Below, piece by piece: positions 1 to 36,703 of a DNA stretch of 36,703 bases. Every line of letters begins with the position of its first letter. Position 1 is the stretch's first letter. Under the pieces are notes generated by a model that was not told where the DNA came from, did no database searches, and saw only the letters and a list, made by a program, of their open reading frames with translations. The position numbers and the translations under genes are program-made. The DNA comes from Planctomycetaceae bacterium (GTDB lineage: Bacteria > Planctomycetota > Phycisphaerae > Phycisphaerales > SM1A02), in assembly GCA_021297815.1 (NCBI GenBank), contig JAJTGK010000028.1, forward strand, positions 1 through 36,703, read 5' to 3'.

Positions 1-48
1 CACACGAACCGAACCGACAGTCGAAAGTCGTAGCCAAGAGTCAACGAC

Positions 49-2280
49 ATGATGGAAACCCTCACCAACGCCGCCTTCGCGATTCCCGCCGTCCTCGGCG
101 AGGCGACCGCGATCAAGCCGGCCGTGCCTGCGACGGACCTCGGATGGGCGGGCCTCATCCTGCTCTTCCCCGCGGTCTCCGCCGTCCTCTGCGGCATCTG
201 CGCCGCGATGCGCGTCAAGGGCAAGCTGCCCGGCGTGATCACGGCGGTCTCGCTGCTCGCGTCGTTCGCCACGACGCTCGCGCTCTTCCTGAATTTCCCT
301 GCCGACGGGCCCCGCACCGTGCACCTCTTCGACTGGGTGTCGATGGCGTGGAGCGGTCAGGGCGCGACCTGGTCGAGCTTCCTTGCGCCGTTCGCGCTGT
401 ACATCGATTCGCTCACGCTGCTCTGGATGCTGTTCGTCACGGGCCTCGGCTCGCTGATCGCGATCTACGCGACCGAGTACATGGAGTCCGATGTCGGCAA
501 GGGCTACGCGCGCTTCTTCGGCTCGGTGAGCATCTTCCTCTTCGCGATGGGTTCGCTCGTGATGGGCGGGAACCTCATCCTGCTCTACCTCGGCTGGGAA
601 GGCGTCGGTCTCGCGAGCTACCTGCTCATCGGCTACTACTACAAGCGCCCGAGCGCCGTCGCCGCCGCCAAGAAGGCGTTCATCATGAACCGCATCGGAG
701 ACCTCGGCCTTGCGCTCGCGGTCTTCCTGATCTGGGTGAACTACGGCACCGTCGAGTTCGATGGCCTGTTCCGCGCAATCTCGAACGGCGTGTCGGCCGC
801 CGAGGGCGGCGAATGGTCGAAGGCCGCGATTCCGTTCTGCCTCATGCTCGGCGCGTTCGGAAAGAGCGCGCAGTTCCCGCTGTATGTGTGGCTTCCCGAC
901 GCGATGGAAGGCCCGACCCCCGTGTCGGCGCTCATCCACGCGGCGACCATGGTCACCGCGGGCATCTACCTGATCGCGCGCACCTACCCGCTGTTCGAGC
1001 TGCACCCCGCGGCGCTGCCCACCGTGGCGGTGATCGGCTGCATCACGGCGCTCCTTGCCGCGACGATCGGCATGGCGCAGTACGACATCAAGCGCGTCAT
1101 GGCGTATTCGACCGTGTCGCAGCTGGGGTACATGTTCCTCGGCCTTGGCGTAGGCACGACCTTCGGCGCCGTGTACCACGTGTTCACGCACGCGTTCTTC
1201 AAGGCGCTGCTCTTCCTCTGCTGCGGCGCGATCATGCACGGCATGGCGGGCCAGCTCGACCTGCGCAAGATGTCGGGCCTTCGCAATGTGAAGGGCTTCG
1301 GCATCATCAGCTGGACCTTCTTCTTCGGCTGCCTCTGCCTTGCGGGCTTCCCCTTCACGGCGGGCTTCTTCTCGAAGGACTCGATCATCGCGCAGGCGTT
1401 CTCGAAGGGCGACACGCTGTCGACCTGGCTCGGGTTCATCGCGCTGTTCACGGCTTTCCTCACGGCGTACTACACCTTCCGCGTGTGGTTCCGCGTGTGC
1501 GGCGGCCCGACGAAGTACGAGCCGGGTGATGAGGATCATGGGCATGACGATGACCACGCGCATGGTCATGGCCATGATCATGGTCACAGCCATGCGAAGG
1601 CTGACGCGCATGGTCACGGTCACGGTCACGGCGAGTTCCACCCGCACGGACCGCGCCTCGCGATCAACGGCGTGCTGCTCGTGATCTGCCTCGGCGCGAT
1701 CCTGGCCGCACTGCCCTCGTACCTCGGCGAGATGCGGCACGAGACGAACTGGGTCGAGTCGATGGTGGCGAATTCCTCGGCCGCTGGCGGCGTTCCCGCC
1801 CATGGTCACGGCGGCGAGCACGGCGAGGCGCACCACGCGCTGGCATTCACGGGCATCGCCGATGTACACAAGGCGACGAGCGTCGTCGCGAGCGCCGCAG
1901 GCATCCTCGGCATCGCCCTCGCGGCCTTCCTGCACCTCCTGAACCGCGGAGCCGCGGACCGTCTCCGCCAGGCCCTGCTCTCGAACGGCCTCACCCGCTG
2001 GCTGCCGCTCGCGATGGAGAACAAGTGGTATGTCGATGAGATCTACCACGCGCTCTTCCGCCTGCCGGCGTGGGTGCTCGGCCACCTCTTCCACATGATC
2101 GACAAGCACCTCATCGACGGGCTGCTCGTCAACCAGGGCGCAAGGATCCCGCAGGATCTCGGCCGCGTGTTCCAGCCGCTCTACAACGGCGCGCTGCAGG
2201 GATACGCGATCACGATGGCAGGCGGCATCGCCCTGATCGCCGCATGGGTGTTCTGGATCCTCTTCCAGGGGAACGGCTGA
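49..2280 (+). CDS. nuoL: NADH-quinone oxidoreductase subunit L
   Basis: Largest antiporter-like subunit of respiratory complex I; it sits in the membrane and carries one of the proton channels plus the long lateral helix. Conserved family residues are visible: GWEGVGL near residues 182-188 (channel Glu183), GKSAQFPLYVWLPDAMEGPTP near 271-291 (Lys272), and HAFFKALLF near 381-389 (Lys385). At 743 residues it is longer than the usual ~610-650. The excess is mostly a loop at residues 491-535 with 15 histidines between 497 and 533, plus a second His/Gly patch near 580-592. Two ATGs lie side by side (49 and 52), so the start is uncertain by one codon. It overlaps nuoM by one base (TGATG), which implies translational coupling. 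Upstream nuo genes must lie outside the window. Confidence 0.97.
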   Translation: MMETLTNAAFAIPAVLGEATAIKPAVPATDLGWAGLILLFPAVSAVLCGICAAMRVKGKLPGVITAVSLLASFATTLALFLNFPADGPRTVHLFDWVSMAWSGQGATWSSFLAPFALYIDSLTLLWMLFVTGLGSLIAIYATEYMESDVGKGYARFFGSVSIFLFAMGSLVMGGNLILLYLGWEGVGLASYLLIGYYYKRPSAVAAAKKAFIMNRIGDLGLALAVFLIWVNYGTVEFDGLFRAISNGVSAAEGGEWSKAAIPFCLMLGAFGKSAQFPLYVWLPDAMEGPTPVSALIHAATMVTAGIYLIARTYPLFELHPAALPTVAVIGCITALLAATIGMAQYDIKRVMAYSTVSQLGYMFLGLGVGTTFGAVYHVFTHAFFKALLFLCCGAIMHGMAGQLDLRKMSGLRNVKGFGIISWTFFFGCLCLAGFPFTAGFFSKDSIIAQAFSKGDTLSTWLGFIALFTAFLTAYYTFRVWFRVCGGPTKYEPGDEDHGHDDDHAHGHGHDHGHSHAKADAHGHGHGHGEFHPHGPRLAINGVLLVICLGAILAALPSYLGEMRHETNWVESMVANSSAAGGVPAHGHGGEHGEAHHALAFTGIADVHKATSVVASAAGILGIALAAFLHLLNRGAADRLRQALLSNGLTRWLPLAMENKWYVDEIYHALFRLPAWVLGHLFHMIDKHLIDGLLVNQGARIPQDLGRVFQPLYNGALQGYAITMAGGIALIAAWVFWILFQGNG

Positions 2281-3950
2281 TGCTTTCGACGCTCCTCAAT
2301 CTTCATGTCATCCTTCCGCTCGCGGCGGCCGCCGCGATCGCGCTCGCCCCGCAGCGCCAGGCGCGTTGGATCGCGACCTTCGCGTCGCTCGCCACCCTCG
2401 GGCTCTCGCTCGCTGCGGCGTTCAACTTCGGCGGCTGGTCCGACGGCTCCTTCGAGCCGAAGGCCGACGGCATCTCGTGGCTTGCGTCGATGGGCATCTC
2501 GCTGACCTTCGCGGTCGACAGCGTGTCGCTCATGCTGATCCTGCTCACGACCTTCCTCACGCCGCTGGCGATGATCGGGTCGTTCACCGCCGTGCAGGAG
2601 CGCGAGAAGGAGTACTACGGCTGGTTCATGGTGCTGCTCGCCGCGATGACCGCGGTGTTCATGGCGCGCGACGCGATCGTGTTCTACACGGCGTACGAGT
2701 TCACGCTCGTCCCGATGTACTTCCTCATCGCGATCTTCGGCGGCGCGGAGCGCAAGGCCGCGAGCATCAAGTTCTTCCTCTACACATTCCTTGGGTCGAT
2801 CCTCACGCTGTCGGGCGTGATCTACATCGCCGCGCAGTACGCGAAGTCGCACGGCGGTTCGTGGACCTTCGACCTCTCCACGCTCGCGACCTTCTGCTCG
2901 ACCGAGCTCGGCGCCGACCAGCAGTACTGGATCTTCATCCTGCTCATGGTCGGCTTCGCGGTGAAGGTGCCGTTCTTCCCCGTGCACACCTGGCTGCCGC
3001 TGGCGCACGATCAGGCGCCCACCGCAGGCTCGGTCATCCTGGCAGGAACGCTGCTCAAGCTCGGCACCTACGGCGTGTACCGCGTGGCGCTGCCCGCGGC
3101 GCCCGTCGGTGGCGTCGAGCTGAGCCAGCTGCTCGCGGTGCTCTGCATCATCGGCATCGTGAACGCCGCGCTGATCTGCTGGGTGCAGCACGACGCGAAG
3201 AAGCTCATCGCCTACAGCTCGGTCAGCCACCTCGGCTTCTGCATGCTGGGGCTCTTCTCGCTCAACTCGCTCGGCGCGACGGGGTCGGTCATGTACATGA
3301 TCAACCACGGCCTCTCGACGGGCGCGCTCTTCCTCTGCATCGGCATGATCTACGAGCGCTACCACACGAAGGACATGGACCAGCTCGGCGGCCTGTTCAA
3401 GCGCATGCCCGTGTGGTCGTTCTTCATGGTGTTCTTCACGCTTGCGAGCCTCGGCCTCCCTGGCCTCAACGGCTTCATCGGCGAGTTCCTCTGCCTGATG
3501 GGCTGCTTTACCGCGGAGCCGAACTCGGTGTCGGGCTGGCCTGGAATCCTCGGGCCGTGGTACGCGGTCGTCGCGGGCCTCGGCCTCGTGCTCGCCGCCA
3601 TGTACCTTCTCATCCTGCTCGGCAAGCTCGTCTGGGGCCCGCTGCGCGAGCCGCATGGCGAGAGCCACCACGGCGGAAGCCACGACACGCATCTTCCCGC
3701 CGACCTCACTCCGCGTGAGATCGGCATCCTTGTTCCGCTCGCGGCCGTGTGCCTTGCGATCGGCTTCTACCCGAAGCCCATGCTCGAGGCGATCGCGCCC
3801 AGCGTCGAGAAGACGCTTGCGCCGTATCCGAAGCTCGTCGAGCGGTTCGTGCAGGACGGGTCGCTGCTGGCCCCTGCAGGGAAGACCGACGGCGTCGCGC
3901 TGGCGCCATCCACCACCGAGAGCCCCGAGCGCAAGACCGTCGGCTTCTGA
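2280..3950 (+). CDS. nuoM: NADH-quinone oxidoreductase subunit M
   Basis: Second antiporter-like proton channel of complex I. The frame is open from 2070, but translation starts at the ATG at 2280, whose A is the last base of the nuoL stop; this gives 556 residues, normal for NuoM. Family landmarks: FYTAYEFTLVPMYFLIAIFG (the channel Glu), FAVKVPFFPVHTWLPLAHDQAP (channel Lys and the conserved loop) and MINHGLSTGALFLC. Many hydrophobic helices are evident. A short histidine-rich stretch (HGESHHGGSHDTH) sits in the loop before the last helix, echoing the one in NuoL. nuoN follows after a 21-base gap, so L-M-N look like one transcript in canonical order. Confidence 0.97.
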   Translation: MLSTLLNLHVILPLAAAAAIALAPQRQARWIATFASLATLGLSLAAAFNFGGWSDGSFEPKADGISWLASMGISLTFAVDSVSLMLILLTTFLTPLAMIGSFTAVQEREKEYYGWFMVLLAAMTAVFMARDAIVFYTAYEFTLVPMYFLIAIFGGAERKAASIKFFLYTFLGSILTLSGVIYIAAQYAKSHGGSWTFDLSTLATFCSTELGADQQYWIFILLMVGFAVKVPFFPVHTWLPLAHDQAPTAGSVILAGTLLKLGTYGVYRVALPAAPVGGVELSQLLAVLCIIGIVNAALICWVQHDAKKLIAYSSVSHLGFCMLGLFSLNSLGATGSVMYMINHGLSTGALFLCIGMIYERYHTKDMDQLGGLFKRMPVWSFFMVFFTLASLGLPGLNGFIGEFLCLMGCFTAEPNSVSGWPGILGPWYAVVAGLGLVLAAMYLLILLGKLVWGPLREPHGESHHGGSHDTHLPADLTPREIGILVPLAAVCLAIGFYPKPMLEAIAPSVEKTLAPYPKLVERFVQDGSLLAPAGKTDGVALAPSTTESPERKTVGF

Positions 3951-3971
3951 GCCCGTACCACGCGAAGCCCC

Positions 3972-5627
3972 ATGCACACCCTCGCCTCCACTTCCATCGA
4001 CATGACCGCGAAGCTCACGCTCATCGCGCCCGAGATCCTGCTGTTCATCGGCGCGGTCGTGGTCGCGGTGCTCGGCCTCTCCCGTGCACCAGCCGTGCGT
4101 CGCGCTGTTCCTGCGGTCACCGCGCTCTTCCTCGCGGGCTCGATCGCCGTCACGGCGTTCGTGTACCGCTCCGACGCGGTCGCCGAGAGCGGCCTGCTCA
4201 TCCCCATGCTTGGCGGATATGCGAAGGCGCTCATCGCGTCGATCGGCATCTTCCTGGTCATGGTGGGCGGCCCCGCCATCGACCGCCGGCTCGAGGAGGC
4301 GTTCGACTCGGGGCGCGCGGCGTTCGACCCGATCCGCACGATGCGCGGCGAGTTCTTCGCGTTCTTCCTGCTGTCGATGGCGGGAACGATGCTGATCGCG
4401 AACGCGAACGACCTGATCTGGCTGTTCCTCGCGCTTGAGCTCTCGAGCCTTCCGACCTATGTCATGGTGGCCGTGAGCCGCGGAACGCGGCGCGCGCAGG
4501 AAGCGGCCGTGAAGTACTTCTTCCTCGGCGCGCTCAGCGCGGCGACCTTCCTGTACGGCTTCGCGCTCCTCTACGGCGCGACGGGTTCGCTCGAGTTCCC
4601 CGTGATGCAGCAGCAGCTCGCGATGCAGGCGGCAACGGGAGGCATCTCGACGCTCGCGATCATCGGCGGCGTGCTTGCGGTGCTTGGCATCGCGTTCAAG
4701 CTGGCCGCGGTGCCCATGCACTTCTACGCGCCCGATGTGTACGAGGGCGCGGGTGCACCGACGACGGCGTTCCTCGGCTTCGTGCCGAAGGTCGCGGGCG
4801 TGCTCGCGCTCATCGTGCTGCTGTCGCTCTTCGGCTGGAGCGGGCACACCGCCATGTTCGATGGCGCCGCCCGCGAGATCTCTGGGCTTCCCGCGCCCAT
4901 CGCGGCGGTGCTCTGGATGGTCGCCGTGCTCACGATGACGCTCGGCAACATCGGCGCCCTGCTCCAGCGCAATGTGAAGCGCATGCTTGCATATAGCTCG
5001 ATCGCGCAGTCGGGCTACCTGCTCATCGGCATCCTGTCGGGACCGAAGGACGGCTTCGACGCGGTGCTCTTCTATCTCGTCGGCTACGGCGTGATGAACA
5101 CCGCGGTGTTCGCCGTCCTGGCGGCGCTTGAACGCAACGGCGAGGAAGTCGAGGCGCTCGACGATCTCAGCGGCCTGCGCACAAGGCAGCCCGTGCTTGC
5201 GTGGATGCTGGCGTTTGCCGCGATCGGCCTGATCGGCATGCCGCCGCTCATCGGCTTCTTCGGAAAGCTGGCGCTGTTCTCGTCGGGCATCGAGAGCGGC
5301 CAGACCGTGCTCGTGATCATCGCCGCCGTGAACAGCGCGATCAGCGCGTTCTACTACCTGCAGCTTGTCGCGGTGCCCATGCTTGGCGCGCCGAACGCGC
5401 GCACGAGCTCGGTGCAGACGATCGCAAGCCCGTGGCCCCGCTACGCGGCCGTCCTGTGCGGCGTTGGCGTCCTCGTGATGCCGCTGGCCGTGCAGTCGCT
5501 CGTCGTGGCGGCCGCCTCGTCAACCGACTCGATCGCACCACAGCAGTCGGCGGCGGTCCCCGCCGAGCCCGCGGTCGACGCTCAAGCGGCAGCGACGGCC
5601 CCTGAAGTTTCGGGCATCTCGCGCTGA
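3972..5627 (+). CDS. nuoN: NADH-quinone oxidoreductase subunit N
   Basis: Third antiporter-like subunit of complex I. Landmarks: LIWLFLALELSSLPTYVMVA (channel Glu), AFKLAAVPMHFYAPDVYEGA (typical NuoN loop with Lys) and NVKRMLAYSSIAQSGYLLIG. Length is 551 residues, slightly longer than usual because of a low-complexity Ala/Pro/Glu tail of about 35 residues. The start at 3972 gives a short Ser/Thr-rich leader before MTAKLTLIAPE; an in-frame ATG at 4002 could be the true start. It is the last gene of the nuo run: a terminator-like inverted repeat spans its stop codon, and the next genes are on the other strand. Confidence 0.95.
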   Translation: MHTLASTSIDMTAKLTLIAPEILLFIGAVVVAVLGLSRAPAVRRAVPAVTALFLAGSIAVTAFVYRSDAVAESGLLIPMLGGYAKALIASIGIFLVMVGGPAIDRRLEEAFDSGRAAFDPIRTMRGEFFAFFLLSMAGTMLIANANDLIWLFLALELSSLPTYVMVAVSRGTRRAQEAAVKYFFLGALSAATFLYGFALLYGATGSLEFPVMQQQLAMQAATGGISTLAIIGGVLAVLGIAFKLAAVPMHFYAPDVYEGAGAPTTAFLGFVPKVAGVLALIVLLSLFGWSGHTAMFDGAAREISGLPAPIAAVLWMVAVLTMTLGNIGALLQRNVKRMLAYSSIAQSGYLLIGILSGPKDGFDAVLFYLVGYGVMNTAVFAVLAALERNGEEVEALDDLSGLRTRQPVLAWMLAFAAIGLIGMPPLIGFFGKLALFSSGIESGQTVLVIIAAVNSAISAFYYLQLVAVPMLGAPNARTSSVQTIASPWPRYAAVLCGVGVLVMPLAVQSLVVAAASSTDSIAPQQSAAVPAEPAVDAQAAATAPEVSGISR

Positions 5628-7252
5628 GTGCCGTTCCCATGAGGCCGCTTCAGGGCCGTCCGCGGGCGGCAGGGTTGACCAGGACTTCCCGAAAAGCACA
5701 CACGCCTCGCGCAAGGCGAGGCATGTGAACGCGACCGGCAGGAATCGAACCTGCAACCCCGAGCTTCGTAGGCTCGTGCTCTATCCAATTGAGCTACGGT
5801 CGCAAACGGGTCGCGAAGTATAGCGAAACCGAGCCGCCCGCCGTCGAGGTCCGAGCCGCCCGCCCCGCCCCAGCCGGCGAGCAGCGATGCCAGGTCTGCG
5901 GCATCCACCGAGCCGTTGTCGTCGAGGTCCGCGGGACACGCAGGCGGCGGCGGCGCCTGGCGCTCGTGGGCGCCGCGGTCGCCGATGGGCGCCGTACCTG
6001 CGCCCGAGTCGGCGACGGCGGGGTCGTCGACAAACCGAGGCAAGCCCGCATGGTCGACCGTCGTGCCGACGGGCACGAGGGCGTTCGAGCCGCTGTCGAT
6101 GGCGGGTGACCCCGCCTGCAGGCGGAAGTCGCGCGTGGCCTGATTGACGAAGAGCGGGTCGCTTGCGAGGTTCGCCGTGCCCGCGAAGCCGCCCTGCACG
6201 ATCGAGTAGGAGACGGTGGTCGTTCCACCCGAGTTCGTGAGCTGGTTGGCCGCGGTCGTGCCGCCGGGCCCCGTGTTCGCCCACAGGATGCAGTTGGCGA
6301 CCGTCGACGAGCCACCCGTGTTGATGATGCAGCCTGCGAGCGAGGTCGCGGAGTTCGCGACGAAAGTCGAGTTGCGCTCGGTTACGGCGCTGCTCACGCC
6401 GATCCACAGCGCGCCGCCGCCATTCGAGCCCGTCGCGGTGTTGCCGCTGAAGATGCAGTTCGTGTACTTCGTCTGCGAGCCGCCGTAGCTCTCGCATGCG
6501 CCCGCGCGGGCGGCGGAATTGCCGATGAAGGTGCAGCGCTCGAAGGTGCCGACCACATTGTTCATGTCGAACGCGCCGCCGTACGAGCCACCGACATTCT
6601 GCTCGAAGCGGCAGTTCACGAAGGTCGCGCCCGCCGTGAAGATGTAGCCCGCGCCGCCACCGAAGGTGCAGCGGTTTCCGATGAAGTTGCAGTTGCGGAT
6701 CGTCGGGCTGCCGCTGTTGATGATCAGGATGCCGCCTCCGCGGTCGAGGCTGCTCGTGCTCGCGCCGTTCGCGTTGCCGGCGCGCACGGTGAAGCCGTCG
6801 AGGACCGCGGTCGATGCGGCGCCCGAGCCGATGACCACATGGTACGAGTTGTCGGTCAGGTTCAGCGTGCCCGAGTCGTTGCCGAGCAGGTCGCCCGTGA
6901 GCGTGCACAGGTTTGCGGCGGGGTCGCGCTGCGCCAGCGACTTCTCGCCGCCCGCGAAGCCGCCGTAGATGGCCACGCCCGACTTCAGGGTGAATGCGAT
7001 GGTCCTGGAGGTGGTTGTCGTCGGCTTGTAGGTGCCGTCGGCGACCCAGATCTCGTCACCCGAGACGCTCGCCGCGAGCGCTGCCGCGAGGCCACCCGCT
7101 CCTTGGTAGGCGTCGGTCCACGAGGTCCCGTTGTTGGCGCCGCTCGCGAGCGCGGCGTCGACGCGGCGAACCGCGCCTTGCGCGGAAGCCGCGGCGAACA
7201 GTGAAAGGAAGAGCGAAGCGGCGAGGGCGGTCGAAGTCGGGCGGGTCGTCAT
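5582..7252 (-). CDS. Secreted parallel beta-helix protein with dockerin-like C-terminus
   Basis: The start is placed at the ATG at 7252 because MTTRPTSTALAASLFLSLF followed by AAASAQGA is a clear Sec signal peptide; an in-frame ATG at 7372 would bury it. After VRRVDAALASGANNGTSWTDAYQGAG the body consists of right-handed beta-helix rungs (repeated G-G-x-I/F, N-C-x-F, GNxA patterns: GGGILIINSGSPTIRNC, NCIFSGNTATGSNGG). A dockerin-like unit follows near residue 437 (CPADLDDNGSVDAADLASLL). The second half of that unit is missing after GGSDLDG: no stop codon occurs, and the frame runs through the tRNA-Arg gene and 46 bases into nuoN. The last ~80 residues are therefore probably not real protein. 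Function: an extracellular or surface protein; substrate unknown. The genuine C-terminus probably lies near 5830. Confidence 0.75.
   Translation of the reverse strand: MTTRPTSTALAASLFLSLFAAASAQGAVRRVDAALASGANNGTSWTDAYQGAGGLAAALAASVSGDEIWVADGTYKPTTTTSRTIAFTLKSGVAIYGGFAGGEKSLAQRDPAANLCTLTGDLLGNDSGTLNLTDNSYHVVIGSGAASTAVLDGFTVRAGNANGASTSSLDRGGGILIINSGSPTIRNCNFIGNRCTFGGGAGYIFTAGATFVNCRFEQNVGGSYGGAFDMNNVVGTFERCTFIGNSAARAGACESYGGSQTKYTNCIFSGNTATGSNGGGALWIGVSSAVTERNSTFVANSATSLAGCIINTGGSSTVANCILWANTGPGGTTAANQLTNSGGTTTVSYSIVQGGFAGTANLASDPLFVNQATRDFRLQAGSPAIDSGSNALVPVGTTVDHAGLPRFVDDPAVADSGAGTAPIGDRGAHERQAPPPPACPADLDDNGSVDAADLASLLAGWGGAGGSDLDGGRLGFAILRDPFATVAQLDRARAYEARGCRFDSCRSRSHASPCARRVCFSGSPGQPCRPRTALKRPHGNGTQREMPETSGAVAAA
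5594..5660 (+). terminator. Long inverted repeat across the nuoN stop codon
   Basis: GACGGC-C-CCTGAAG (5594-5607) can pair with CTTCAGG-GCCGTC (5648-5660): 13 pairs with one bulge, enclosing about 40 bases. No clear U-tract follows, so it may be a transcript-end structure rather than a classical intrinsic terminator. Confidence 0.35.
5692..5722 (-). terminator. Terminator of tRNA-Arg
   Basis: On the minus strand the stem GCCTCGC/GCGAGGC (5704-5722) closes a 5-base loop and is followed within about 8 bases by TTTT (5695-5692). It lies just downstream of the tRNA-Arg gene. Confidence 0.55.
5731..5803 (-). tRNA. tRNA-Arg (anticodon ACG)
   Basis: Complete cloverleaf on the minus strand. The 7-bp acceptor stem is GCGACCG/CGGTCGC. 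The anticodon stem CGAGC/GCTCG encloses the loop CTACGAA, so the anticodon is ACG (Arg, CGN codons after A34-to-inosine editing). The T arm carries GGTTCGATTCC. CCA is not encoded. The gene lies entirely inside an open reading frame that continues from the beta-helix protein on the same strand. Confidence 0.96.
5817..5822 (-). promoter_or_regulatory. -10 box of tRNA-Arg
   Basis: TATACT on the minus strand, 13 bases before the mature tRNA 5' end. No convincing -35 is seen 17 bases further upstream. The box lies within the frame of the beta-helix gene, next to a 14-bp direct repeat. Confidence 0.5.
5829..5864. repeat. 14-bp direct repeat at the end of the dockerin-like unit
   Basis: CCGAGCCGCCCGCC occurs at 5829-5842 and again at 5851-5864, separated by 8 bases. 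It covers the point where the dockerin-like unit of the minus-strand protein breaks off (after SDLDG). A slippage or recombination deletion between such repeats would explain the missing second half and stop codon. Confidence 0.7.

Positions 7253-25436: not shown

Positions 25437-25440
<4 letters not shown>
23311..25440 (+). CDS. dnaG: DNA primase
   Basis: Makes RNA primers at the replication fork. The N-terminal CHC2 zinc finger has C40, H43, C63 and C66 ([18 protein letters not shown]). The TOPRIM catalytic core follows, with E276 in [11 protein letters not shown] and D320/D322 in [18 protein letters not shown]. The C-terminal region, which in this family binds the DnaB helicase, is weakly conserved. 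The last ~100 residues are low complexity (Ala, Ser, Pro, Arg) and show no motif. Length is 709 against the usual ~600. It overlaps rpoD by four bases (GTGA), so the two form a reduced macromolecular-synthesis operon; rpsU is not upstream. Confidence 0.96.
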
Positions 25441-27380
<1,940 letters not shown>

Positions 27381-29220: not shown

Positions 29221-29251
29221 GCGCGCAGTCTACGCGAAGCCGCTCGGCCGC

Positions 29252-29470
29252 CTAGCGGTCGCCGCAATCGTTTCGAATGCGCCGCAGCAGCTCCTCCATC
29301 GACTCGAGCGCGTTCATCGCGGCCCGCAGCTGCTTGTCGATCGGGGCGATCGAGCGCTCATGGAAGGTCCGCGCGACATCGTCGCGCCAGTGCTCGTTGA
29401 CCTTCGTCCACGCATTGATCAGGTCGCGGTGGGCCGCATTCATGCGGGCGCGGGAGTCGGACATGCTCAT
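29252..29470 (-). CDS. Second small W-x-D helical protein, possibly WXG100-like
   Basis: 72 residues from the ATG at 29470, overlapping the stop of the 226-residue gene by four bases (ATGA). It is nearly all helix: ARMNAAHRDLINAWTKVNEHW, a turn at W28-R-D30, then VARTFHERSIAPIDKQLRAA and MNALESMEELLRRIRNDC. Layout and the Trp at the turn mirror the WXG100-like gene that follows 31 bases downstream, so the two may form a heterodimer, as EsxA/EsxB do (inference). One cysteine near the C-terminus; no signal peptide. No named family recognised with confidence. Confidence 0.65.
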   Translation of the reverse strand: MSMSDSRARMNAAHRDLINAWTKVNEHWRDDVARTFHERSIAPIDKQLRAAMNALESMEELLRRIRNDCGDR

Positions 29471-30147
29471 GGCGCCCCCCCGTTCCTGCGGAGTTCTGCC
29501 ACGGCCGCGTCGCGCGCCGCGGCGAGCTCGCGCTCGTCCTTCTCGAGCTGCGCCTGCTCCATGGCCTCGGCCGCCTCCTCCTCGGCGGTGCGCGCCTCGC
29601 CCGCGCGCCGCATCGACCCGAAGCTCGAACGCGCGCGCTCGAGCTGCACGGCAAGCGACGGCGTCGGCGAACTCAGGTACGCCTCGAGGGCGAGCGTCAT
29701 GTTCTTGACACGCTGGATCGCGTTCGGCATGTCGCGGTCGACGAGGGACGACATCGGCGACATGTGGCTCTTGTAGAGCGCGACCTCGCGCTCGAGCTGG
29801 ACGAGCCACCGCCGCGTCTTGTCGAGCCGCTCGCGCGCGTCCTCGGAGCGAGCCTTGGCGCGGGCGACCGCCTTCTTCTCATCGATGGTGGACGGGCGCT
29901 GGCCCGTGCCCATCGTCTGCATCTCCTTGCGGAAGAGCGCCGACTTCGCCGAAGTCAGCTCCTCCTCGAGCCGCGGCACGGCGCGCTTCCAGTGCATCAT
30001 GCGGTCGCGCTCGAGCCAGACGAACATCGCCTTGAGCTCGCTCTCGGCCTCGGCGACGGCGACATTGATCTCCTCGCGGAAACGGACGAGCGCGCGGCGG
30101 AACTCGTCGAGCGCCGCCACATCGGTGATGTTCGCTTCGCCGGCCAC
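29467..30147 (-). CDS. Coiled-coil protein associated with the WXG100-like pair
   Basis: 226 residues from GTG 30147, which abuts the stop of the symporter gene with no gap. It is entirely helical and highly charged: DEFRRALVRFREEINVAVAE and AESELKAMFVWLERDRM, then the Trp-bearing segment MHWKRAVPRLEEELTSAKSA, a break at GTGQRPSTIDE, then KARSEDARERLDKTRRWLVQ and a Glu/Ala-rich C-terminal coil (EEEAAEAMEQAQLEKDEREL). No signal peptide or membrane helix. I recall similar planctomycete proteins with the W-L-E-x-D...W-K and ...R-R-W-L spacing, but know no function. It overlaps the 72-residue gene, so it is very probably a functional partner of the two small proteins. Confidence 0.7.
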   Translation of the reverse strand: MAGEANITDVAALDEFRRALVRFREEINVAVAEAESELKAMFVWLERDRMMHWKRAVPRLEEELTSAKSALFRKEMQTMGTGQRPSTIDEKKAVARAKARSEDARERLDKTRRWLVQLEREVALYKSHMSPMSSLVDRDMPNAIQRVKNMTLALEAYLSSPTPSLAVQLERARSSFGSMRRAGEARTAEEEAAEAMEQAQLEKDERELAAARDAAVAELRRNGGAP

Positions 30148-31214
30148 TCAGGCGGTCTTCTTCTTCGACGGGTAGAAGAGGAGCATGAGCACGAAGCAGG
30201 CCACGGCCATGTACATGGGCACGCTGAAGAGCTTCGTGTAGTCCATCTGGCCTTCGGCCATCCCCGCCGACGCGTACTTCGCGACGACACTCGTCGCAAA
30301 GAGGCTTCCGACGATGATGCCGATGCCGACGATGACGAGGTTGAACAGGTTCTGCGCGGTGGCGCGGATGTCCGCCGTCGTGTTCTCGTCGACGACCATG
30401 AACGCGACGAAGACGAAGCAGCCGAAGCAGAGGCCGTGGAGGGCGATGCCGAGGATGACGGTCGGAAGCGCGGGCGCGAAGGCGAAGAGCGCCATGCGCG
30501 CCGCATAGGCGGCGAGGCCGATCAGGAGAAGGTTCTTGCGCGACACGGACTTCGCGAAGAACGGAATCGCCGCGAGTACGGCGATCTCGGTCATCTGGCC
30601 CACCGTCATGAGTCCGCCGCCACCGACGCCGAAGATGCGGTTGACCCAGTCGGAGAACGCGTCGGCGCTCGCGCTGCCCGCGTTCTTCTGCACTTCGGTC
30701 ACGAACTGGCTCGTGAAGACGAAGTAGAACTGGTGGATCATGCTGACGGGAACGGCGATCGCGAACAGCGTGATGAGCGGCTGCTTCATGATCTCCTTCA
30801 CACCCTCGAGCCATGCGGTCTTCTCGGCGGCCGACTTCGTCGGGGGCGTGTGAGGCAGCGTGAGGCAGTACGCCGCCATCACGATGCCGAGGCCCGCTGC
30901 AATCAGGAAGCCAACCGCGCGACCCTCGTTGAGCTTGGCGTCGCCATCGTTGTAGTGGAGCAGGAGGATCTGACCGACGGCGATGCCTGCGGCGATCCAG
31001 CCGATCGTGCCCCAGAGGCGCACGGGGCCGAAGTCACGGTCACGGTCGGGAAGATTCGCGAACGAGATCGAGTTGGTGAGCGCCATCGTGGGCGCGTACA
31101 CGAGGCCGTACACGAAGCTCAGCCCGAGAAACACCTCGAACTTGTCGGCGCCCGCGAGGAAGTACACAAGCACCGCGCCGGCAAGATGGCTGACGGCGAG
31201 CAGATCGCCGTCAT
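30148..31214 (-). pseudogene. Nucleoside:H+ symporter-like MFS transporter lacking its N-terminal helices
   Basis: The readable frame (GDLLAVSHLAGAVLVYFLAG... to the stop at 30148) has about nine membrane helices and the family segment YGLVYAPTMALTNSISFANL, then VRLWGTIGWIAAGIAVG, as in NupG/XapB-type nucleoside permeases. Those proteins have three more helices (~80-90 residues) before this point. Here an excellent ribosome site (AGGAGGTG, 31228-31221) and ATG 31214 lie upstream in a different frame, and family similarity begins only about 12 bases later. The simplest reading is a deletion just after the start codon that also changed the frame. It is followed without gap by the coiled-coil gene. 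It could be a real pseudogene or an assembly gap. Confidence 0.65.
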
Positions 31215-31291
31215 GTCGGACACCTCCTGGTTGACCCGGAAGGCCGCAATCTAGCCGAAACGCGCGCGCGCGTCCGAGAGCCTCGCCCGCC

Positions 31292-31297
31292 TATACT
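31292..31297 (+). promoter_or_regulatory. -10 box almost touching the ispG start codon
   Basis: TATACT ends 8 bases before the ispG ATG (31306). A start of transcription at the usual distance would leave a leader of about 0-3 bases. No -35 consensus and no ribosome site are seen. Confidence 0.5.
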
Positions 31298-31305
31298 CGC
31301 CGCCC

Positions 31306-32395
31306 ATGAATCCCCGCCGAAAGACCCGTCAGATCACCGTGGGCGACGACCGCGTCGGCCGCGTCAAAATCGGTGGCGACGCCCCGATCGCGGTCCAGAC
31401 CATGACCGCGGGCTACACCCACGACATCGACGCCTGCGTGCGCGAGATCGACCGCTACGCGGCAGCGGGGGCCGATGTCGCCCGCGTCGCGGTGCCCGAG
31501 CGGCGACGCCTGCAAGGAGCGCGCGATCCCGATCCGCATCGGCGTGAACGAGGGCTCGATCATCGAGCGCAAGGACAAGCTGCGCCGCGCCGAGGAGCTC
31601 GGCAAGTTCTTCGCCGACAGGAAGAGCGGCCACATGCTCGCGCTCATGATCGCGAAGCTCGAGGAGTACCTCGACATCTTCGACGCGCGCGGCTTCCACG
31701 ATGTGGCCATCAGCGCGAAGTCGATGGACGCGGCCATGGTCATCGATGTGTACACCGAGATCTCGCAGCGCTTCGACTACCCGCTGCACCTCGGCGTCAC
31801 GCACGCGGGCCCGCGCGACACGGGCGCGATCCGCTCGATCGCCGCTCTGTCGACCCTGATCGCGAACGGCATCGGCGACACCCTGCGCATCTCGTACGCC
31901 AGCGACCACCTCGACGAGGTCAAGGACGGGCTCGAGCTCCTCTACTGCCTCGGAAAGCGCGAGCGCAAGGGCGTCGAACTCATCGCGTGCCCGACCTGCG
32001 GCCGCATCCAGGTCGATCTCTTCACGCTGGTGAAGGAGGTCGAGAAGAAGCTCATGCCCGAACTCGTGCTGCCGATCAAGGTCGCCGTGATGGGGTGCAT
32101 CGTGAACGGCCCAGGCGAGGCCGAGGGCGCCGATGTGGCGGTGTTCGCGGGCGACCGCCGCGGCATCATCTATGTGCAGGGCCAGAAGGTCGCGAATGTG
32201 CCCGAGGCCGAGATCCTCGACCGCCTGCTCGCCGAATGCCGCGCGTTCGAGGCGAAGGTGAAGGCGGGCGAGGCGAAGCTCGGCGAGAAGCTCGTCGAGA
32301 TCGTGCCGCCCGATCCGATCGGCGAACTCGGCTCTGGCGCCGACAAGATCCGCGCGGGCCTGGTCGAGCAGGTCACCATCGGCAAGAGCTCCTGA
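31306..32395 (+). pseudogene. ispG: 4-hydroxy-3-methylbut-2-enyl diphosphate synthase with an internal deletion and frameshift
   Basis: IspG (GcpE) converts MEcPP to HMBPP in the MEP isoprenoid pathway using a [4Fe-4S] cluster. The first frame gives [35 protein letters not shown] and [14 protein letters not shown] up to about 31500. The rest lies in another frame: [39 protein letters not shown], with cluster ligands in ACPTCGR and [10 protein letters not shown], ending at 32395. Between AVPE and DACKE roughly 60 residues of the TIM barrel are missing, including the strand that normally carries VADIHF and the R-I-N-P-G-N segment. As written it cannot make an active enzyme. The gene is normally essential, so an assembly error or a second copy elsewhere is likely. 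Confidence 0.8.
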
Positions 32396-32399
32396 GGCG

Positions 32400-33095
32400 A
32401 TGAACCGCACGCCCGCGCTCCTTCCGCTCATGCTGGCAGCGGCCGCGCTTGGCGGCGCGTCGATGCTCGTGGGGTGCATGGTTCCCAAGCGCGCGCCGAA
32501 CCCGTCGTTCGCGGTCACGAACGCCGAGGCGGCCTCGGACCTGCGGCGAATGCGCGAGTCGCCGAGGAAGCTCTTCACCGAGTTCACCTTCGAGGGCGCG
32601 CGGCAGCAGCTGCTCCGTGAGCTGGCGTTGGCGTTCGGCACCGATCTCGACCACCTTCCCGAGGTCGATGTGGTGGCGTTCTCGATGGGCGGACTGGTCG
32701 CGCGCGCGGCGGCGATTCCCGATGAATCGGGCCGGTTCCTCCCCATCAGGCGCTTGTACAGCCTCTCGGTGCCGCATGAAGGCGCGCGTCTGGCGGGCGT
32801 GCCGTTCGGCATCCCACAAGGCGACGACATGCGACCGGGCTCGCCGTTCCTCCTGCGCCTTGCGGCGGCGCCGCGCGACTACGAACTCGTGTGCTACACG
32901 CGGCTCGACGATGTGACGGTGGGCGAGGAGTTCGCGGCACCGGAAGGCGAGCCGTTGTGGTGGGTGCCCACGCCGTCGGGCGAGTACGCACACATGCAGG
33001 CGTTCGAGGATCCGCGCATCCAAGCCGACATCGCGCGGCGCCTGCGCGGCGAGGAGCCGTTCGGGCGGCCTCCTGCGGCTCCCCTGCCCAACTGA
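32400..33095 (+). CDS. Lipoprotein of the alpha/beta-hydrolase (lipase-like) fold, probably missing an internal block
   Basis: 231 residues, starting 4 bases after the ispG stop. Signal peptide with lipobox L23-V-G-C26, so the mature protein is lipid-anchored. The nucleophile elbow is [12 protein letters not shown], with Ser95; [11 protein letters not shown] resembles the lid/acyl region and EYAHMQAF may hold the catalytic His. In this family the chain between the first residues ([12 protein letters not shown]) and the helix before the elbow ([14 protein letters not shown]) normally contains a first beta-strand with the oxyanion-hole segment; only a few residues (FTEFTFEG) stand there. An in-frame loss of ~40-50 residues is suspected, in line with damage in the genes on either side. 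Substrate unknown. Confidence 0.65.
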
Positions 33096-33157
33096 CCAAT
33101 CCGCGCCGCTCTCCCCCGAGCCTGGCGTTTCACGCCGCTTTCAGGCGTTCCATTCCG

Positions 33158-33163
33158 TATATT
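33158..33163 (+). promoter_or_regulatory. -10 box of the pseudopilin gene
   Basis: TATATT, 35 bases before the ATG at 33198. The -35 is not convincing. Confidence 0.4.
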
Positions 33164-33170
33164 GCCCCAT

Positions 33171-33187
33171 CGCCTCGCGCCGAGGCG
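33171..33187 (+). promoter_or_regulatory. Leader hairpin next to the ribosome site of the pseudopilin
   Basis: CGCCTCG-CGC-CGAGGCG is a perfect 7-bp stem at the very start of the transcript; the GGGAG ribosome site begins at its last base (33187-33191). Confidence 0.5.
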
Positions 33188-33197
33188 GGAGCACCCA

Positions 33198-34259
33198 ATG
33201 CCGAAGAGCGCCCACCAGCGTCCGTTTCTCCGTCGCGGTTTCACGATCGTCGAGCTGCTGGTCGTGATCGGGATCATCGCGATCCTCATCTCGCTGGTGA
33301 CGATCAGCCTCTCGCGTGCGGGCCAGAGCGCGCGCCAGACGCAGTACCTCAGCAACCTCCGCCAGGTTGGCACGGGCTGGGAGCTCTACACGAACCAGAA
33401 CGACGACCGCCTGATGCCTGGCTACATGGACGACGGCGTCCAGCAGGCGTTCCGAGTGAAGTGCTTCAACCGCGCGGGCGACCGGCTTACGCCCGACCTG
33501 TGCCGCACCTATCCGTTCCGCATCCTGCCGTTCCTCGATCACGATCGAACCCTGATGTTCGACTACCTCAACGACTTCGAGGATGTCACCGAGATCCCGA
33601 ACGATGTGATCGCAAACAACCCCGCCTTCGGCATCAACGCCTACTACGTCGGCGGCTGGTGGATCACCGATCAGGGGCAGCCGCGCATGCGCTACTCGGG
33701 CACGGGCTACTTCCGCTCGCCCGGAAACCTCGTGGCCAACCAGGAGGTCGTGGTGCGCGCGAAGGGCCAGATCGAGCGGTCGAGCGAGCTCGTCGTCTTC
33801 ACCTCGAGCTACTCGGCGCCTGCGGGCTTCGCAAAGAACCCCTTCGAGGGCGAGGTCGGCGCAGCGTGGGTCGTTCCGCACCGCATGGCCACGACCGACA
33901 TCTGGGCCTCGAGCGACGGTGGCGCCTACGACGTCATCACCGCCCCTGGCGCGAGCGGGCTGACCGATGCCTCGCGCCTCGACCCGCGGCCGCTCCTTGC
34001 GGGCCTCTTCCGCGACGATGTGCGCGAGCAGAGCCAGATCCTGCGCGTGCAGGGCGATACGGGCATCCAGGTCTTCGTGCCGCAGGCGGTGCCGCTGCGT
34101 CGCATCCGCAATGTGGTGCAGACGATGCGCGCCGACCTTTCCACGCAGGTGCAGGGTCTTCGCGACCTCATGAACCAGGGCCGTTGGATCAACCCAGGCG
34201 GCCGCTGCGATGACCCTGTGAACTTCTCGCACCCGAATGACGGGCTCGGGAATCCCTGA
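33198..34259 (+). CDS. Type II secretion-type pseudopilin (prepilin with N-terminal methylation signal)
   Basis: 353 residues. The frame is open from 33162, but the ATG at 33198 has a ribosome site and gives the proper short leader: MPKSAHQRPFLRRG followed by FTIVELLVVIGIIAILISL. A prepilin peptidase would cut after G14; Glu at +5 (E19) is present and the hydrophobic helix spans ~15-36. The globular part (LYTNQNDDRLMPGYMDDG, PAFGINAYYVGGWWIT) is the large-domain kind common in planctomycetes. It is not clearly DUF1559, as the usual C-terminal histidine block is not seen. It probably forms or caps a pseudopilus in the periplasm. No gsp genes are adjacent. Two of the window's four ACGT sites fall in this gene. 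Confidence 0.82.
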   Translation: MPKSAHQRPFLRRGFTIVELLVVIGIIAILISLVTISLSRAGQSARQTQYLSNLRQVGTGWELYTNQNDDRLMPGYMDDGVQQAFRVKCFNRAGDRLTPDLCRTYPFRILPFLDHDRTLMFDYLNDFEDVTEIPNDVIANNPAFGINAYYVGGWWITDQGQPRMRYSGTGYFRSPGNLVANQEVVVRAKGQIERSSELVVFTSSYSAPAGFAKNPFEGEVGAAWVVPHRMATTDIWASSDGGAYDVITAPGASGLTDASRLDPRPLLAGLFRDDVREQSQILRVQGDTGIQVFVPQAVPLRRIRNVVQTMRADLSTQVQGLRDLMNQGRWINPGGRCDDPVNFSHPNDGLGNP

Positions 34260-34279
34260 CGAACGCAGCGCGAGGCGCG

Positions 34280-35556
34280 CTACTTCGCGTCTTGCGCGGC
34301 ACGCTTCGCCTCGGCCCGCGACTTGAGCCGTTCAAGACGGTCGCGCAGGCCCAAGGCCTTCTTCGCAGCCTCGTCCGAAGCCGCAGGGTCGGATTCCGCC
34401 GCCGCAAGCTGCTTCGCGGTCTTCTCGACCTGCTCGTCGAGCCGCTTCACGCTCCACTCGTCGACCGACATGGCGGTCGACCAGATGGCTTCGCGCGGCT
34501 CCATGCCGTACTCCTCGCGCAGGGTCTTCTCGAAGTCGGCCATGTGCGCCGCGCCGTAGAAGATCGCGACCGACGGCGGCGCGTCCTTCGAGGCGAGCAG
34601 CGCGCGCAGATGGTCGATCACGGCGTCGTTGCGCTCGTCGATGATGATCCGCGTGTCGACTTCGCCAAGGCCGCCGCGGCCGCGACGCCCCGAACCCGCC
34701 TCGCCGAGCGCCTGCACGACCATCTTCTTGAACGAGGTCGACTTCGATACGAACGAAAGCAGGAACCGCAGCAGGCCGCGCTGGAAGCCCGAGTCCGACG
34801 AGAGCATCTCGATGGTCGCGCTGCGCTCGCCGCGCTTCCACAGCCGGTCGAGGAGCTCCTCCATCGGAAGGTCCGCAGGCTCCCAACCCGCGCGGTCGTA
34901 GTCGATCGAGCGGACCTGCAGCGTGACATCCAGGGCATCGGCCATCTCGAGGTAGAGGTCGCGCTTCTCCTCGGACGACTTCTCGGCGGAGAGCTTCTCG
35001 TACTTCGCGAGGTCGCGCGGGTGCGCCGACAGCACCAGGTCGAGCGCGGTGCCGCGGCCTCCTTCGGCGCGGTCCGACCCGAGCGAGCGCAGCACGAAGC
35101 CGCCCTGCTCCTCGCGGTACTCGACCGTCGCGCCCCAGCCGTCGCTCATCGCGAGGTCGAAGGGCCGCGCAAGGCGCGCGTCCTGACCGACGACGAATGC
35201 CCGCAGTTCTTCGCGGCTCGCGGGAAGGCGGTTGTTCTTGAGTCGGAAGCGCTCGATGAGCGAGCGCGTGAAGAGCATCGCGTCCTGCGTGCGGCGCTGG
35301 CGCTCGAGGTCGTCGCGGCCTCCTCGTCGTAGTAGCGCTCGTCGCCGATGTGGATGACGCCGACGAGCCACACCGCGGGGCCGCTGCCGTCAGCCCGTCG
35401 GTACTCGCGCGAGCAGATCTCGAGCGCGGTGTAGCCGTCGCGGCTCGACGAGCGGATGTACGGGGAGGGCTCGGGCGCCTCGGCATTCGGGGGCTCCGCG
35501 TGCGCAAGCGACGCGGCCGCGAGCGCGGTGACAAGCGAGAAACGCGCCGAACTCAT
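34280..35556 (-). pseudogene. TraB-like secreted protein with an internal deletion and frameshift
   Basis: The start is ATG 35556, overlapping the stop of the ExbB-like gene by four bases (ATGA). The first frame gives a signal peptide (MSSARFSLVTALAAASLAHA), then YTALEICSREYRR and VWLVGVIHIGDERYYDEE, the opening of the TraB/PrgY/GumN fold. Near 35325 the coding signal jumps to another frame (DDLERQRRTQDAMLFTRSLIERFRL) and stays there to TAG 34280. The acidic strand normally following (a D-x-V-x-x-E-G-type segment) is missing, so a block of perhaps 20-40 residues has been lost. Later segments DLVLSAHPRDL and DERNDAVIDHLRALLASKD, then VAIFYGAAHMADFEKTL, fit the TraB pattern (the last holds the conserved Y-G-x-x-H). 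Molecular function unknown. Confidence 0.65.
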
Positions 35557-36185
35557 CGCTTCACCGACCAGTTGCGCACGGGGCCGAGCCCCTGCTTCGC
35601 GCTCGTCACGATCGACTCGAACCGCCCGAGCGCGCGCTCGGCGTAGCCTCGGAAGAGCATGTACGGAAACAGCGCGGCGAGCGCGATCACGAGGCCTGCG
35701 GCGGTCGTGATCAAGGCCTCGCCGATGCCCGACGAGACATCGCGCGGGTCGACGAGCGCGCGCTGGCCGCCGAGCAGCTCGAAGGACTGGATGATGCCCG
35801 TGACGGTGCCGAGGATCCCCAGCATCGGGCTCGCGGTCACGATGGTCGAGAGGATGTTCATGAAGCGCTCGGTCTTGCCGCGCAGCTGCTCGATCATCTC
35901 GACCGCCACCGCGTCGTCGGGCCCCTCGTCCAGCATGCGCTTCGCGAGCTGGTCGTACACGCCGCCCTTCTCCTCGACAAGCGACTCGGCCTTCGAGCGG
36001 TCGCCGTTCCGAAGCGCGCGGAGAATGGCGCGAAGGCGCTCCTGCTCGCTGCGCGAGTCGAGCGACCACCAGAACCAGGTGCGCTCGAGGGAGATGGCGA
36101 GCGCCGTGACGCTGACTCCGAGAAGCGGCCACATGACCCAGCCGCCGCGCTCGATGAGAGTGAAGAGATCGAAGGACGCAGTCAT
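35553..36185 (-). CDS. MotA/TolQ/ExbB-family proton-channel protein
   Basis: 210 residues from the ATG at 36185. Three membrane helices are in the ExbB order: helix 1 near 14-32 (GWVMWPLLGVSVTALAISLE), a cytoplasmic region of about 70 charged residues (RLRAILRALRNGDRSKAESLVE), helix 2 ILSTIVTASPMLGILGTVTG with the conserved TVTGII, and helix 3 GEALITTAAGLVIALAALFPYM, whose small and polar residues line the proton path. Such proteins use proton flow to drive an ExbD/TolR partner and a periplasmic effector. No exbD or tonB is adjacent; instead it is coupled to the TraB-like gene. The partner must be elsewhere or unusual. Confidence 0.85.
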   Translation of the reverse strand: MTASFDLFTLIERGGWVMWPLLGVSVTALAISLERTWFWWSLDSRSEQERLRAILRALRNGDRSKAESLVEEKGGVYDQLAKRMLDEGPDDAVAVEMIEQLRGKTERFMNILSTIVTASPMLGILGTVTGIIQSFELLGGQRALVDPRDVSSGIGEALITTAAGLVIALAALFPYMLFRGYAERALGRFESIVTSAKQGLGPVRNWSVKR

Positions 36186-36231
36186 CGGGCGGGCATGGTA
36201 TCGAACCGCACGATTCGGGTAGATTCGGGAC

Positions 36232-36703
36232 ATGACCGCCGAGCCCCCCGCGCCCGATGCACCGCCGCTCGACGCCGCGCTCCTCGATCGAATCGAGCGG
36301 GGCCTCGACGCGGCGCTCCGTGATGCGCCGTTTCCCGAGAATCTGCGGACAGCCTGCGCGCATGCGGTGCTTGCGGGCGGCAAGCGGCTGCGTCCCATCC
36401 TCGTCCTCGAGAGCGCGCGGGCGTGCGGCGGCACGGTCGACGATGCGCTTCCTGCGGCGGTCGCGATGGAGTTCGTGCATGCATTCAGCCTCGTGCACGA
36501 CGATCTTCCCGCGCTCGACGACGACGACATGCGCCGTGGGCGGCCGACATGCCATGTGGCGTTCGGCGAGGCGATGGCGATTCTCGCAGGAGACGCGCTG
36601 CTCGCGCGCGCCCCGATGATCGCCGCGGCCTGCCCGCGGAACGGCGACGCCGCCGCGCGGCTGCTCCTCCACGCGACCTGCGACATGATCGCGGGGCAGG
36701 TGC
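36232..36703 (+). CDS. ispA: Polyprenyl (farnesyl/geranylgeranyl) diphosphate synthase, cut by the window end
   Basis: Condenses IPP with allylic diphosphates to make C15/C20 chains. The first 157 residues are visible. AGGKRLRP (48-55) binds IPP, and the first aspartate-rich motif is LVHDDLPALDDDDMRRG (D90, D91, D96), the form seen in IspA-type enzymes. The second DDxxD motif and the stop lie beyond the window. Product chain length cannot be settled. It is divergent from the ExbB-like gene across 46 bases that contain two copies of GATTCGGG. It shares the isoprenoid theme with ispG 4 kb away. Confidence 0.9.
   Translation, partial: MTAEPPAPDAPPLDAALLDRIERGLDAALRDAPFPENLRTACAHAVLAGGKRLRPILVLESARACGGTVDDALPAAVAMEFVHAFSLVHDDLPALDDDDMRRGRPTCHVAFGEAMAILAGDALLARAPMIAAACPRNGDAAARLLLHATCDMIAGQV

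What the first reader, a model, noticed from the sequence alone, without database searches (positions are those of the whole stretch)
1..36703. Near-total absence of the tetranucleotide ACGT
Reading the whole + strand I found only four ACGT (1178, 22975, 33646, 33931); it is palindromic, so this covers both strands. With about 33% each of G and C and 17% each of A and T, independence predicts about 110. The genome routes around it: Asp and Asn, normally GAC and AAC, become GAT and AAT before codons starting GT (GATGTC, GATGTG, AATGTG recur throughout), and ATGT/ACAT are common. Replacement by ATGT/ACAT is what deamination of a methylated C in ACGT would leave; restriction avoidance is the other explanation. 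TCGA and GCGC remain abundant, so this is not general CpG loss.
Basis: partly seen in the sequence, partly recalled or inferred. Interest (0 to 1): 0.78.

Follow-up and report, generated by a model that had tools for sequence, protein, structure and literature searches.

The report
Near-absence of ACGT in planctomycete genomes
The four-letter DNA word ACGT is almost missing from this lake-type bacterium's genome, and the pattern of what replaced it looks like selection against a DNA-cutting target rather than chemical decay of methylated cytosine; the same loss recurs in many relatives, but the enzyme behind it was not found.

Summary
The window holds exactly four ACGT, at the stated places, against 94 expected. 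The loss is genome-wide: 14 against 697 expected in 20 further contigs. ACGT is as scarce outside called genes (4/99) as inside (13/684).

The mechanism named first, deamination of methylated C, is not supported. At 23 conserved Thr-ACG|T sites of relatives, this genome has ACCT at 20 and the deamination product ACAT at none. The remaining Thr codons keep about their usual proportions (p=0.21). No m5C methyltransferase (PF00145) was found in it or in eight other depleted assemblies. NAC-to-NAT before GT is the only synonymous escape there, so it does not discriminate.

The best reading is restriction-type selection against a palindromic DNA word. It is patchy: 7 of 15 genomes measured in the genus, and 41 of 400 genomes of the order by a GACGTC proxy; ACGT O/E is 0.00-0.07 in 8 of 8 low genomes sampled from a second family. 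The cognate enzyme is unidentified. ACGT avoidance is known in Helicobacter pylori; this is a recurrent variant without the m5C signature.

The parts
1..36703 (.). whole window: ACGT depleted (4 found, 94 expected) and CCGG depleted (60 found, 271 expected)
   Evidence: 4-mer count with Markov expectation
1178..1181 (.). surviving ACGT in a nuoL gene (codons CAC GTG)
   Evidence: gene name from NCBIfam NF005141
22975..22978. surviving ACGT outside the ORFs checked, upstream of dnaG
   Evidence: dnaG from TIGR01391
33646..33649 (.). surviving ACGT in an ORF that looks by eye like a pseudopilin (codons TAC GTC)
   Evidence: no NCBIfam match for the ORF
33931..33934 (.). surviving ACGT in the same ORF (codons GAC GTC)
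25437..27380 (+). rpoD, used as marker to fetch relatives and for trees; itself free of ACGT
   Evidence: name from TIGR02393

Best explanation
ACGT is selected against as a double-stranded DNA word. The most likely agent is one or more ACGT-specific type II-like restriction activities that have been gained and lost repeatedly in this planctomycete order; in this genus a separate CCGG-specific one probably acted too. Occasional failure of protection cuts unmodified chromosomal sites, so variants that lose the site are favoured and synonymous alternatives fill in according to the ordinary codon preferences. Shown: genome-wide loss, equal in and between genes; loss by whichever synonymous route is open and not preferentially by C-to-T; palindromic targets; patchy recurrence among relatives. 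Inferred: that the agent is a nuclease, that it cuts ACGT, and that the modification is not m5C (m4C, m6A or none remain open).
For: Depletion is genome-wide and about the same in intergenic DNA (4/99.4) as in called CDS (13/684.1), so it acts on DNA, not on codons or mRNA. By a z-like score CCGG and ACGT are the two most depleted 4-mers; by O/E the lowest are ACGT, CTAG and CCGG, all palindromes. The chance that the two lowest of 136 classes are both palindromes is 0.013. Replacement follows synonymous opportunity and ordinary codon preference, while control words are mostly kept at conserved sites: TCGA 110 of 114 and 439 of 451, GCGC 195 of 253, 181 of 206 and 235 of 330 (exception: TCGA at offset 3, 0 of 13). 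Close relatives differ sharply: in the genus, G000, G004, G006, G007, G009, G010 and G013 are depleted, and G001, G002, G003, G005, G008, G011, G012 and G015 are normal or weakly low, at least 4 changes on a tree with some weak forks. ACGT and CCGG depletion are separable. Published work links avoidance of palindromes to orthodox type II R-M systems and to traces of lost ones (PMC4687349, passages).
Against: No cognate methyltransferase was found. PF00145 and PF02086 are absent in G000, G006, G010, G013, G030, G064, G065, G066 and G067. PF01555, PF07669 and PF02384 hits that were compared have close relatives in non-depleted genomes; a type I HsdM-like piece lies in G000; other hits were not examined (for example G006 C133, G010 C480, several of G030, G067 C2 and C67). 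Depth near zero argues against a system lost long ago in each of these lineages. Foreign-looking stretches carrying ACGT persist in depleted genomes (G000 C165: 9 ACGT in 6.9 kb; G004 L136: O/E 0.85). Nothing here shows cutting or methylation. Relatives share genes, so its sites are not all independent.
Confidence: 0.62

Rival explanations
1. m5C methylation of ACGT followed by deamination to ATGT/ACAT.
For: Known ACGT methyltransferases M.Hpy99XI and M.MaeII are m5C enzymes, and H. pylori ACGT change is skewed to ATGT/ACAT (PMC10423294, PMC10113651, passages read). 75 of 77 conserved NAC|GT sites hold ATGT. Among 46 ACGT sites with an amino acid change, 8 hold ATGT or ACAT (frame 1: 3 ATGT, 1 ACAT; frame 2: 4 ACAT). 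Four depleted genomes (G004, G007, G009, G016) do carry PF00145 proteins.
Against: Frame 1: 0 of 23 ACAT and 20 of 23 ACCT. The ACA share of non-ACG Thr codons is not clearly raised before T in G000 (odds ratio 1.36, p=0.12), nor in 8 low genomes of a second family (0.193 against 0.220; that table as a whole differs, p=1e-5, through an ACT excess). No PF00145 in nine depleted assemblies. CCGG losses are mostly transversions.
Confidence: 0.08
2. A mutational process other than deamination (for example break-and-repair or mismatch repair specific to ACGT) removes the word without selection.
For: It would also give equal loss in genes and between them, and no enzyme is identified.
Against: It must give C-to-T at NAC|GT (75 of 77) and G-to-C at ACG|T (20 of 23) at once, following codon synonymy, which points to selection filtering the outcomes.
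Confidence: 0.12
3. Trace of an R-M system present in the recent past but now lost, or carried on plasmids or islands that escape binning.
For: PMC4687349 reports avoidance without the system as traces of lost systems (passages). Weakly low genomes exist (G001, G008, G015, stretches at O/E 0.53-0.83). G000 is 88% complete.
Against: Several depleted genomes are rated 95-97% complete (G004, G007, G013, G016, G030), and recent loss would have to be repeated in many lineages.
Confidence: 0.15
4. mRNA-level avoidance (an endoribonuclease or codon-pair effect).
For: 84% of the sampled DNA of G000 is called coding.
Against: Intergenic depletion is about as deep as coding depletion; both words are DNA palindromes.
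Confidence: 0.03

Closest known systems
ACGT avoidance in Helicobacter pylori (HpyCH4IV / M.Hpy99XI)
   Same: The same palindrome and very deep loss (O/E 0.11 and 0.05 in the two data sets of PMC3849833, the second of which I take to be whole genomes; passages); large differences between lineages not correlated with methyltransferase frequency (PMC10423294, passages).
   Different: There the methyltransferase is m5C and loss is skewed to ATGT/ACAT. Here no m5C methyltransferase was found in nine depleted assemblies and free sites do not go to the deamination product.
Avoidance of orthodox type II R-M recognition sites in prokaryotic genomes (Rusinov et al. 2015, PMC4687349)
   Same: Short palindromic words depleted beyond expectation, variable among relatives, sometimes with no R-M system present (passages).
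   Different: The system is not identified here, O/E falls to 0.00-0.07, and one word recurs in 15 genera of one order by the proxy count.
MaeII R-M system of Methanococcus aeolicus (ACGT)
   Same: Same target word.
   Different: M.MaeII is an m5C enzyme (PMC10113651, passages). Its sequence was not at hand, so no homology test was made.

Membership tests
Site avoidance caused by a resident orthodox type II R-M system | palindromic word under-represented beyond Markov expectation, genome-wide | tested here: met
Site avoidance caused by a resident orthodox type II R-M system | acts on DNA in coding and non-coding sequence alike | tested here: met
   CDS 0.02, intergenic 0.04
Site avoidance caused by a resident orthodox type II R-M system | varies among close relatives as expected from gain and loss | tested here: met
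   some tree forks weak
Site avoidance caused by a resident orthodox type II R-M system | cognate methyltransferase and endonuclease encoded in the genome | tested here: not met
   five Pfam methyltransferase families gave no cognate candidate in G000; assembly 88% complete; endonucleases not searched family by family
Site avoidance caused by a resident orthodox type II R-M system | modified ACGT in native DNA | not testable with these tools
   no kinetic or bisulfite data
m5C-deamination-driven motif loss | m5C methyltransferase present | tested here: not met
   no PF00145 in G000, G006, G010, G013, G030, G064-G067; present in depleted G004, G007, G009, G016
m5C-deamination-driven motif loss | excess of C-to-T products where other synonymous choices are free | tested here: not met
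mRNA-level word avoidance | confined to transcribed sequence | tested here: not met
   (intergenic DNA as a stand-in for untranscribed DNA)

The most novel reading that the evidence does not exclude
An unrecognised ACGT-targeting nuclease system, with a non-m5C modification or with none, circulates through the planctomycete order of this genome. Hosts become immune largely by erasing the site from their chromosome (down to 3 GACGTC in a 3.2-Mb assembly, G173, and 0 ACGT in 40 kb of it), so that protection by absence partly replaces protection by methylation.
Probability: 0.2. Interest if true: 0.82.

Novelty: new variant of a known kind. Interest (0 to 1): 0.52.

Why it matters
ACGT avoidance was tied to an m5C enzyme and deamination in H. 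pylori. Here the same word is nearly erased by selection-like replacement, in many genera of one order, with no m5C enzyme in sight in nine assemblies. That makes a clean natural experiment: close relatives with and without depletion can be compared gene by gene to find the agent, and it offers a way to separate restriction avoidance from deamination by codon choice alone.

Tried and rejected
Candidate enzymes. (1) The PF01555 protein of G000 (L113:3780-4700, minus strand, motif I before DPPY) has strong matches in 13 of 16 genus genomes, depleted or not (partial in G002, none in G005 and G009), and in at least one genome of each of the six families sampled, though many genomes lack it. (2) The PF07669-like protein at G000 C130 has orthologs at 48-57% identity in depleted and normal genus members alike. 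(3) Weak PF07669 hits in G009 and G013 are, by eye, PrmC/HemK. (4) The DPPF-type PF01555 protein of the deeply depleted G066, with those of G064, G065 and G067 C29, has relatives at 54-89% identity in genomes not or weakly depleted. (5) The 358-aa PF01555 protein of G013 is 60% identical to one of depleted G030, and 60% and 58% to ones of normal G022 and G019. (6) PF00145 proteins of depleted genomes did not form a group of their own (its script chose ORFs crudely, took wrong frames for some loci, G004, G014 and G044 among them, and took one ORF twice for G007). (7) G016 C69 carries an m5C methyltransferase beside an MvaI/BcnI-type endonuclease, a family whose known targets (recalled) are not ACGT. 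(8) G000 C165 holds a contig-edge piece of a type I HsdM-like protein.

Artefact: 21 contigs of one MAG and named MAGs of several projects show the same loss, so misassembly is unlikely. Codon or mRNA effect: disfavoured by intergenic counts. A search of phage records with window 1-24000 gave one short match, and a plasmid search with the G016 methyltransferase gave only distant relatives; neither helped.

Limits. Gene calls in the codon tests are a home-made ORF heuristic (GC3 above GC2). Even in non-depleted genomes ACG is somewhat rarer before T than elsewhere, so the log odds of 5.6 is an upper figure. NNA|CGT sites (0 of 11 kept) are weak evidence, as the control TCGA at that offset is not kept either (0 of 13). 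The relatives used include weakly low ones (G001, G008, G015). One search read plus-strand frames only; one search repaired this except for G067 C67. The rpoD tree left out 7 minus-strand loci; one search repaired that for the genus, without G009 and with no state for G014. GACGTC is only a proxy for ACGT; for G030 it gives a ratio of 0.26 although its two stretches have ACGT 0/39 and 2/35. That L033-L038 and L106 lie in G012, G003, G005, G010, G013, G015 and G004 is judged from identical hits. Samples next to PF00145 genes can lie in islands and were not used alone to call a genome normal. Stretches of G014 and G035 read as N and were dropped.

Full report
OBSERVATION. The window contains exactly four ACGT, at the coordinates given, against 94.4 expected from its own 3-mers (O/E 0.042; independence 110.3); Poisson P = 3.5e-35. 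TCGA and GCGC are normal. In 20 further stretches of the same 3.03-Mb MAG, ACGT is 14/697 and CCGG 352/1762. Genome-wide, GACGTC occurs 24 times against 1591 for its reversed control. Depletion of CCGG is similar in every flanking context, and surviving ACGT have varied flanks.

WHERE IT ACTS. ACGT is depleted about equally in called genes (13/684) and in the rest (4/99), and CCGG likewise (0.20 and 0.21), while the nine other palindromes tested there lie at 0.86-1.15. The force therefore acts on DNA. Three of the four survivors in the window lie at NAC|GTN in reading frames; the fourth is outside the ORFs checked, upstream of dnaG (gene names).

DEAMINATION OR SELECTION. ACGT can be left silently in frame-specific ways. 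At NAC|GT the only silent change is C to T, so GATGTC and AATGTG are expected under either hypothesis. At Thr ACG|T, deamination gives ACA, while avoidance lets ACC, ACT or ACA fill in by ordinary preference. In this genome Thr before T is 39 ACA, 349 ACC, 2 ACG, 26 ACT; elsewhere it is 108, 1332, 2064, 82. ACG is removed and the rest keep about their proportions (p=0.21; ACA alone odds ratio 1.36, p=0.12). The log odds against ACG before T is 5.6, an upper figure, since ACG is somewhat rarer before T in non-depleted genomes too. In 55 ortholog pairs (at least 60% identical) with non-depleted or weakly low members of the genus, 23 conserved Thr ACG|T sites are 20 ACCT, 1 ACTT, 1 ACGC, 1 ACCC and 0 ACAT; 77 NAC|GT sites are 75 ATGT and 2 ACGT; 11 NNA|CGT sites keep none. 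A further 46 ACGT sites have amino acid changes, of which 8 carry ATGT or ACAT. CCGG sites hold mainly CCCG (46 of 62) and CGGG (47 of 75). Control words are mostly kept: TCGA 439 of 451 and GCGC 181 of 206 at offset 2; but TCGA at offset 3 is kept at 0 of 13, so the NNA|CGT result says little. Several relatives share a gene, so sites are not all independent. No PF00145 protein was found in G000 or in eight other depleted assemblies, although depleted G004, G007, G009 and G016 do have some. Deamination is therefore unlikely to be the driver.

DISTRIBUTION. Of 80 loci around rpoD from named MAGs, 7 have ACGT O/E below 0.2 (L036, L037, L070, L071, L089, L093, L106). In the window's genus, stretches of G000, G004, G006, G007, G009, G010 and G013 are depleted (G004, G007 and G010 also have stretches at 0.37-0.85), while those of G001, G002, G003, G005, G008, G011, G012 and G015 are normal or weakly low; G014 could not be measured. 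On a two-gene tree with several weak forks the state changes at least four times. Over 400 genomes of the order, the ratio GACGTC/CTGCAG is under 0.1 in 41: 14 of 170 in family f1 (6 genera), 27 of 163 in f2 (9 genera, most of them in g91), 0 of 67 in f3-f6 (counted from the typed table). All 8 low f2 genomes sampled (of 27) have ACGT O/E 0.00-0.07 with normal CCGG (0.86-1.06); two members of g91 that are not low have 0.82 and 0.60. In the pooled low f2 genomes ACA is again not in excess (0.193 against 0.220 of non-ACG Thr codons), though ACT is. So ACGT loss is recurrent and separable from CCGG loss.

THE MISSING AGENT. PF02086 is absent in G000, G004, G006, G007, G010, G013, G030 and G064-G067. 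The PF01555 and PF07669-like proteins of G000 and G013 have close relatives in non-depleted genomes; G000 also has a contig-edge piece of a type I HsdM-like protein. The PF01555 proteins of G064, G065, G066 and G067 (C26, C29) likewise have relatives in genomes not or weakly depleted. Other hits were not followed up (for example G006 C133, G010 C480, several of G030, G067 C2 and C67), and endonucleases were not searched family by family. DNA with normal ACGT persists as islands in depleted genomes (G004 L136; G000 C165), so an active unprotected cutter is not proved. Either the system is of a kind not covered, is unbinned, was lost recently, or the force is not restriction.

COMPARISON. Avoidance of palindromic R-M sites, including traces of lost systems, is well documented (PMC4687349, passages read). 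H. pylori has ACGT at O/E 0.05-0.11 by G+C expectation (PMC3849833, passages), with an m5C enzyme and loss skewed to ATGT/ACAT (PMC10423294, passages); M.MaeII is m5C too (PMC10113651, passages). The present case works like R-M site avoidance, but the defining enzyme pair was looked for and not found, so it is not filed as a proven member. Eight searches bearing on site avoidance, ACGT and methylation, planctomycetes or Phycisphaerales among the terms of three, listed no paper that I recognised as describing ACGT avoidance in planctomycetes. Only the top listings were shown, only open-licence full texts were searched, and I read listings and passages, not whole papers. The lake metaepigenome paper PMC6329791 has no hit for ACGT or Planctomycet in its main text.

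VERDICT. A real, extreme and recurrent DNA-word avoidance; best explained as restriction-type selection, with deamination disfavoured and the agent unknown.

Noticed in passing
window 31306-32403: ispG looks broken by a frame change: by eye its start is in the ORF 31306-32403, and the rest is in the ORF 31475-32395 (NCBIfam match to ispG from profile position about 126). Assembly error or pseudogene; only described.
   Followed up: no
L378 (G000 C165, 6923 bases): Foreign-looking contig with 9 ACGT and 40 CCGG, carrying a contig-edge piece of a type I HsdM-like protein: undepleted DNA inside a depleted genome.
   Followed up: partly
L136 (G004 C14:50000-69999): Stretch around a PF00145 methyltransferase with ACGT O/E 0.85, while other stretches of this genome are at 0.03-0.45: a likely recent island.
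   Followed up: partly
L104, L092, L148 and other rpoD loci: Other palindromes are low in other relatives: AGCT 0.20 in L104, GATC 0.28 in L092, AATT 0.31 in L148, GCGC about 0.5-0.6 in a number of the rpoD loci.
   Followed up: no
L113:3780-4700 (minus strand) and relatives L203-L232: A PF01555 protein with motif I before DPPY (the reverse of the profile's order), 54-90% identical over its core, in at least one genome of each of six families of the order; target unknown.
   Followed up: partly
L301-L305, L307: A second PF01555 family (DPPF in the members read) shared by depleted and non-depleted genomes, 54-92% identical.
   Followed up: partly
L379 (G016 C69): An m5C methyltransferase overlapping by a few bases with an MvaI/BcnI-type endonuclease gene (PF15515, E 1.9e-53), shortly after a gene that looks by eye like accC.
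   Followed up: partly
L036: Record titled Limnohabitans sp. encodes an RpoD 93% identical to the window's protein, whose other close matches are titled as planctomycetes or uncultured bacteria: the public label looks wrong.
   Followed up: no
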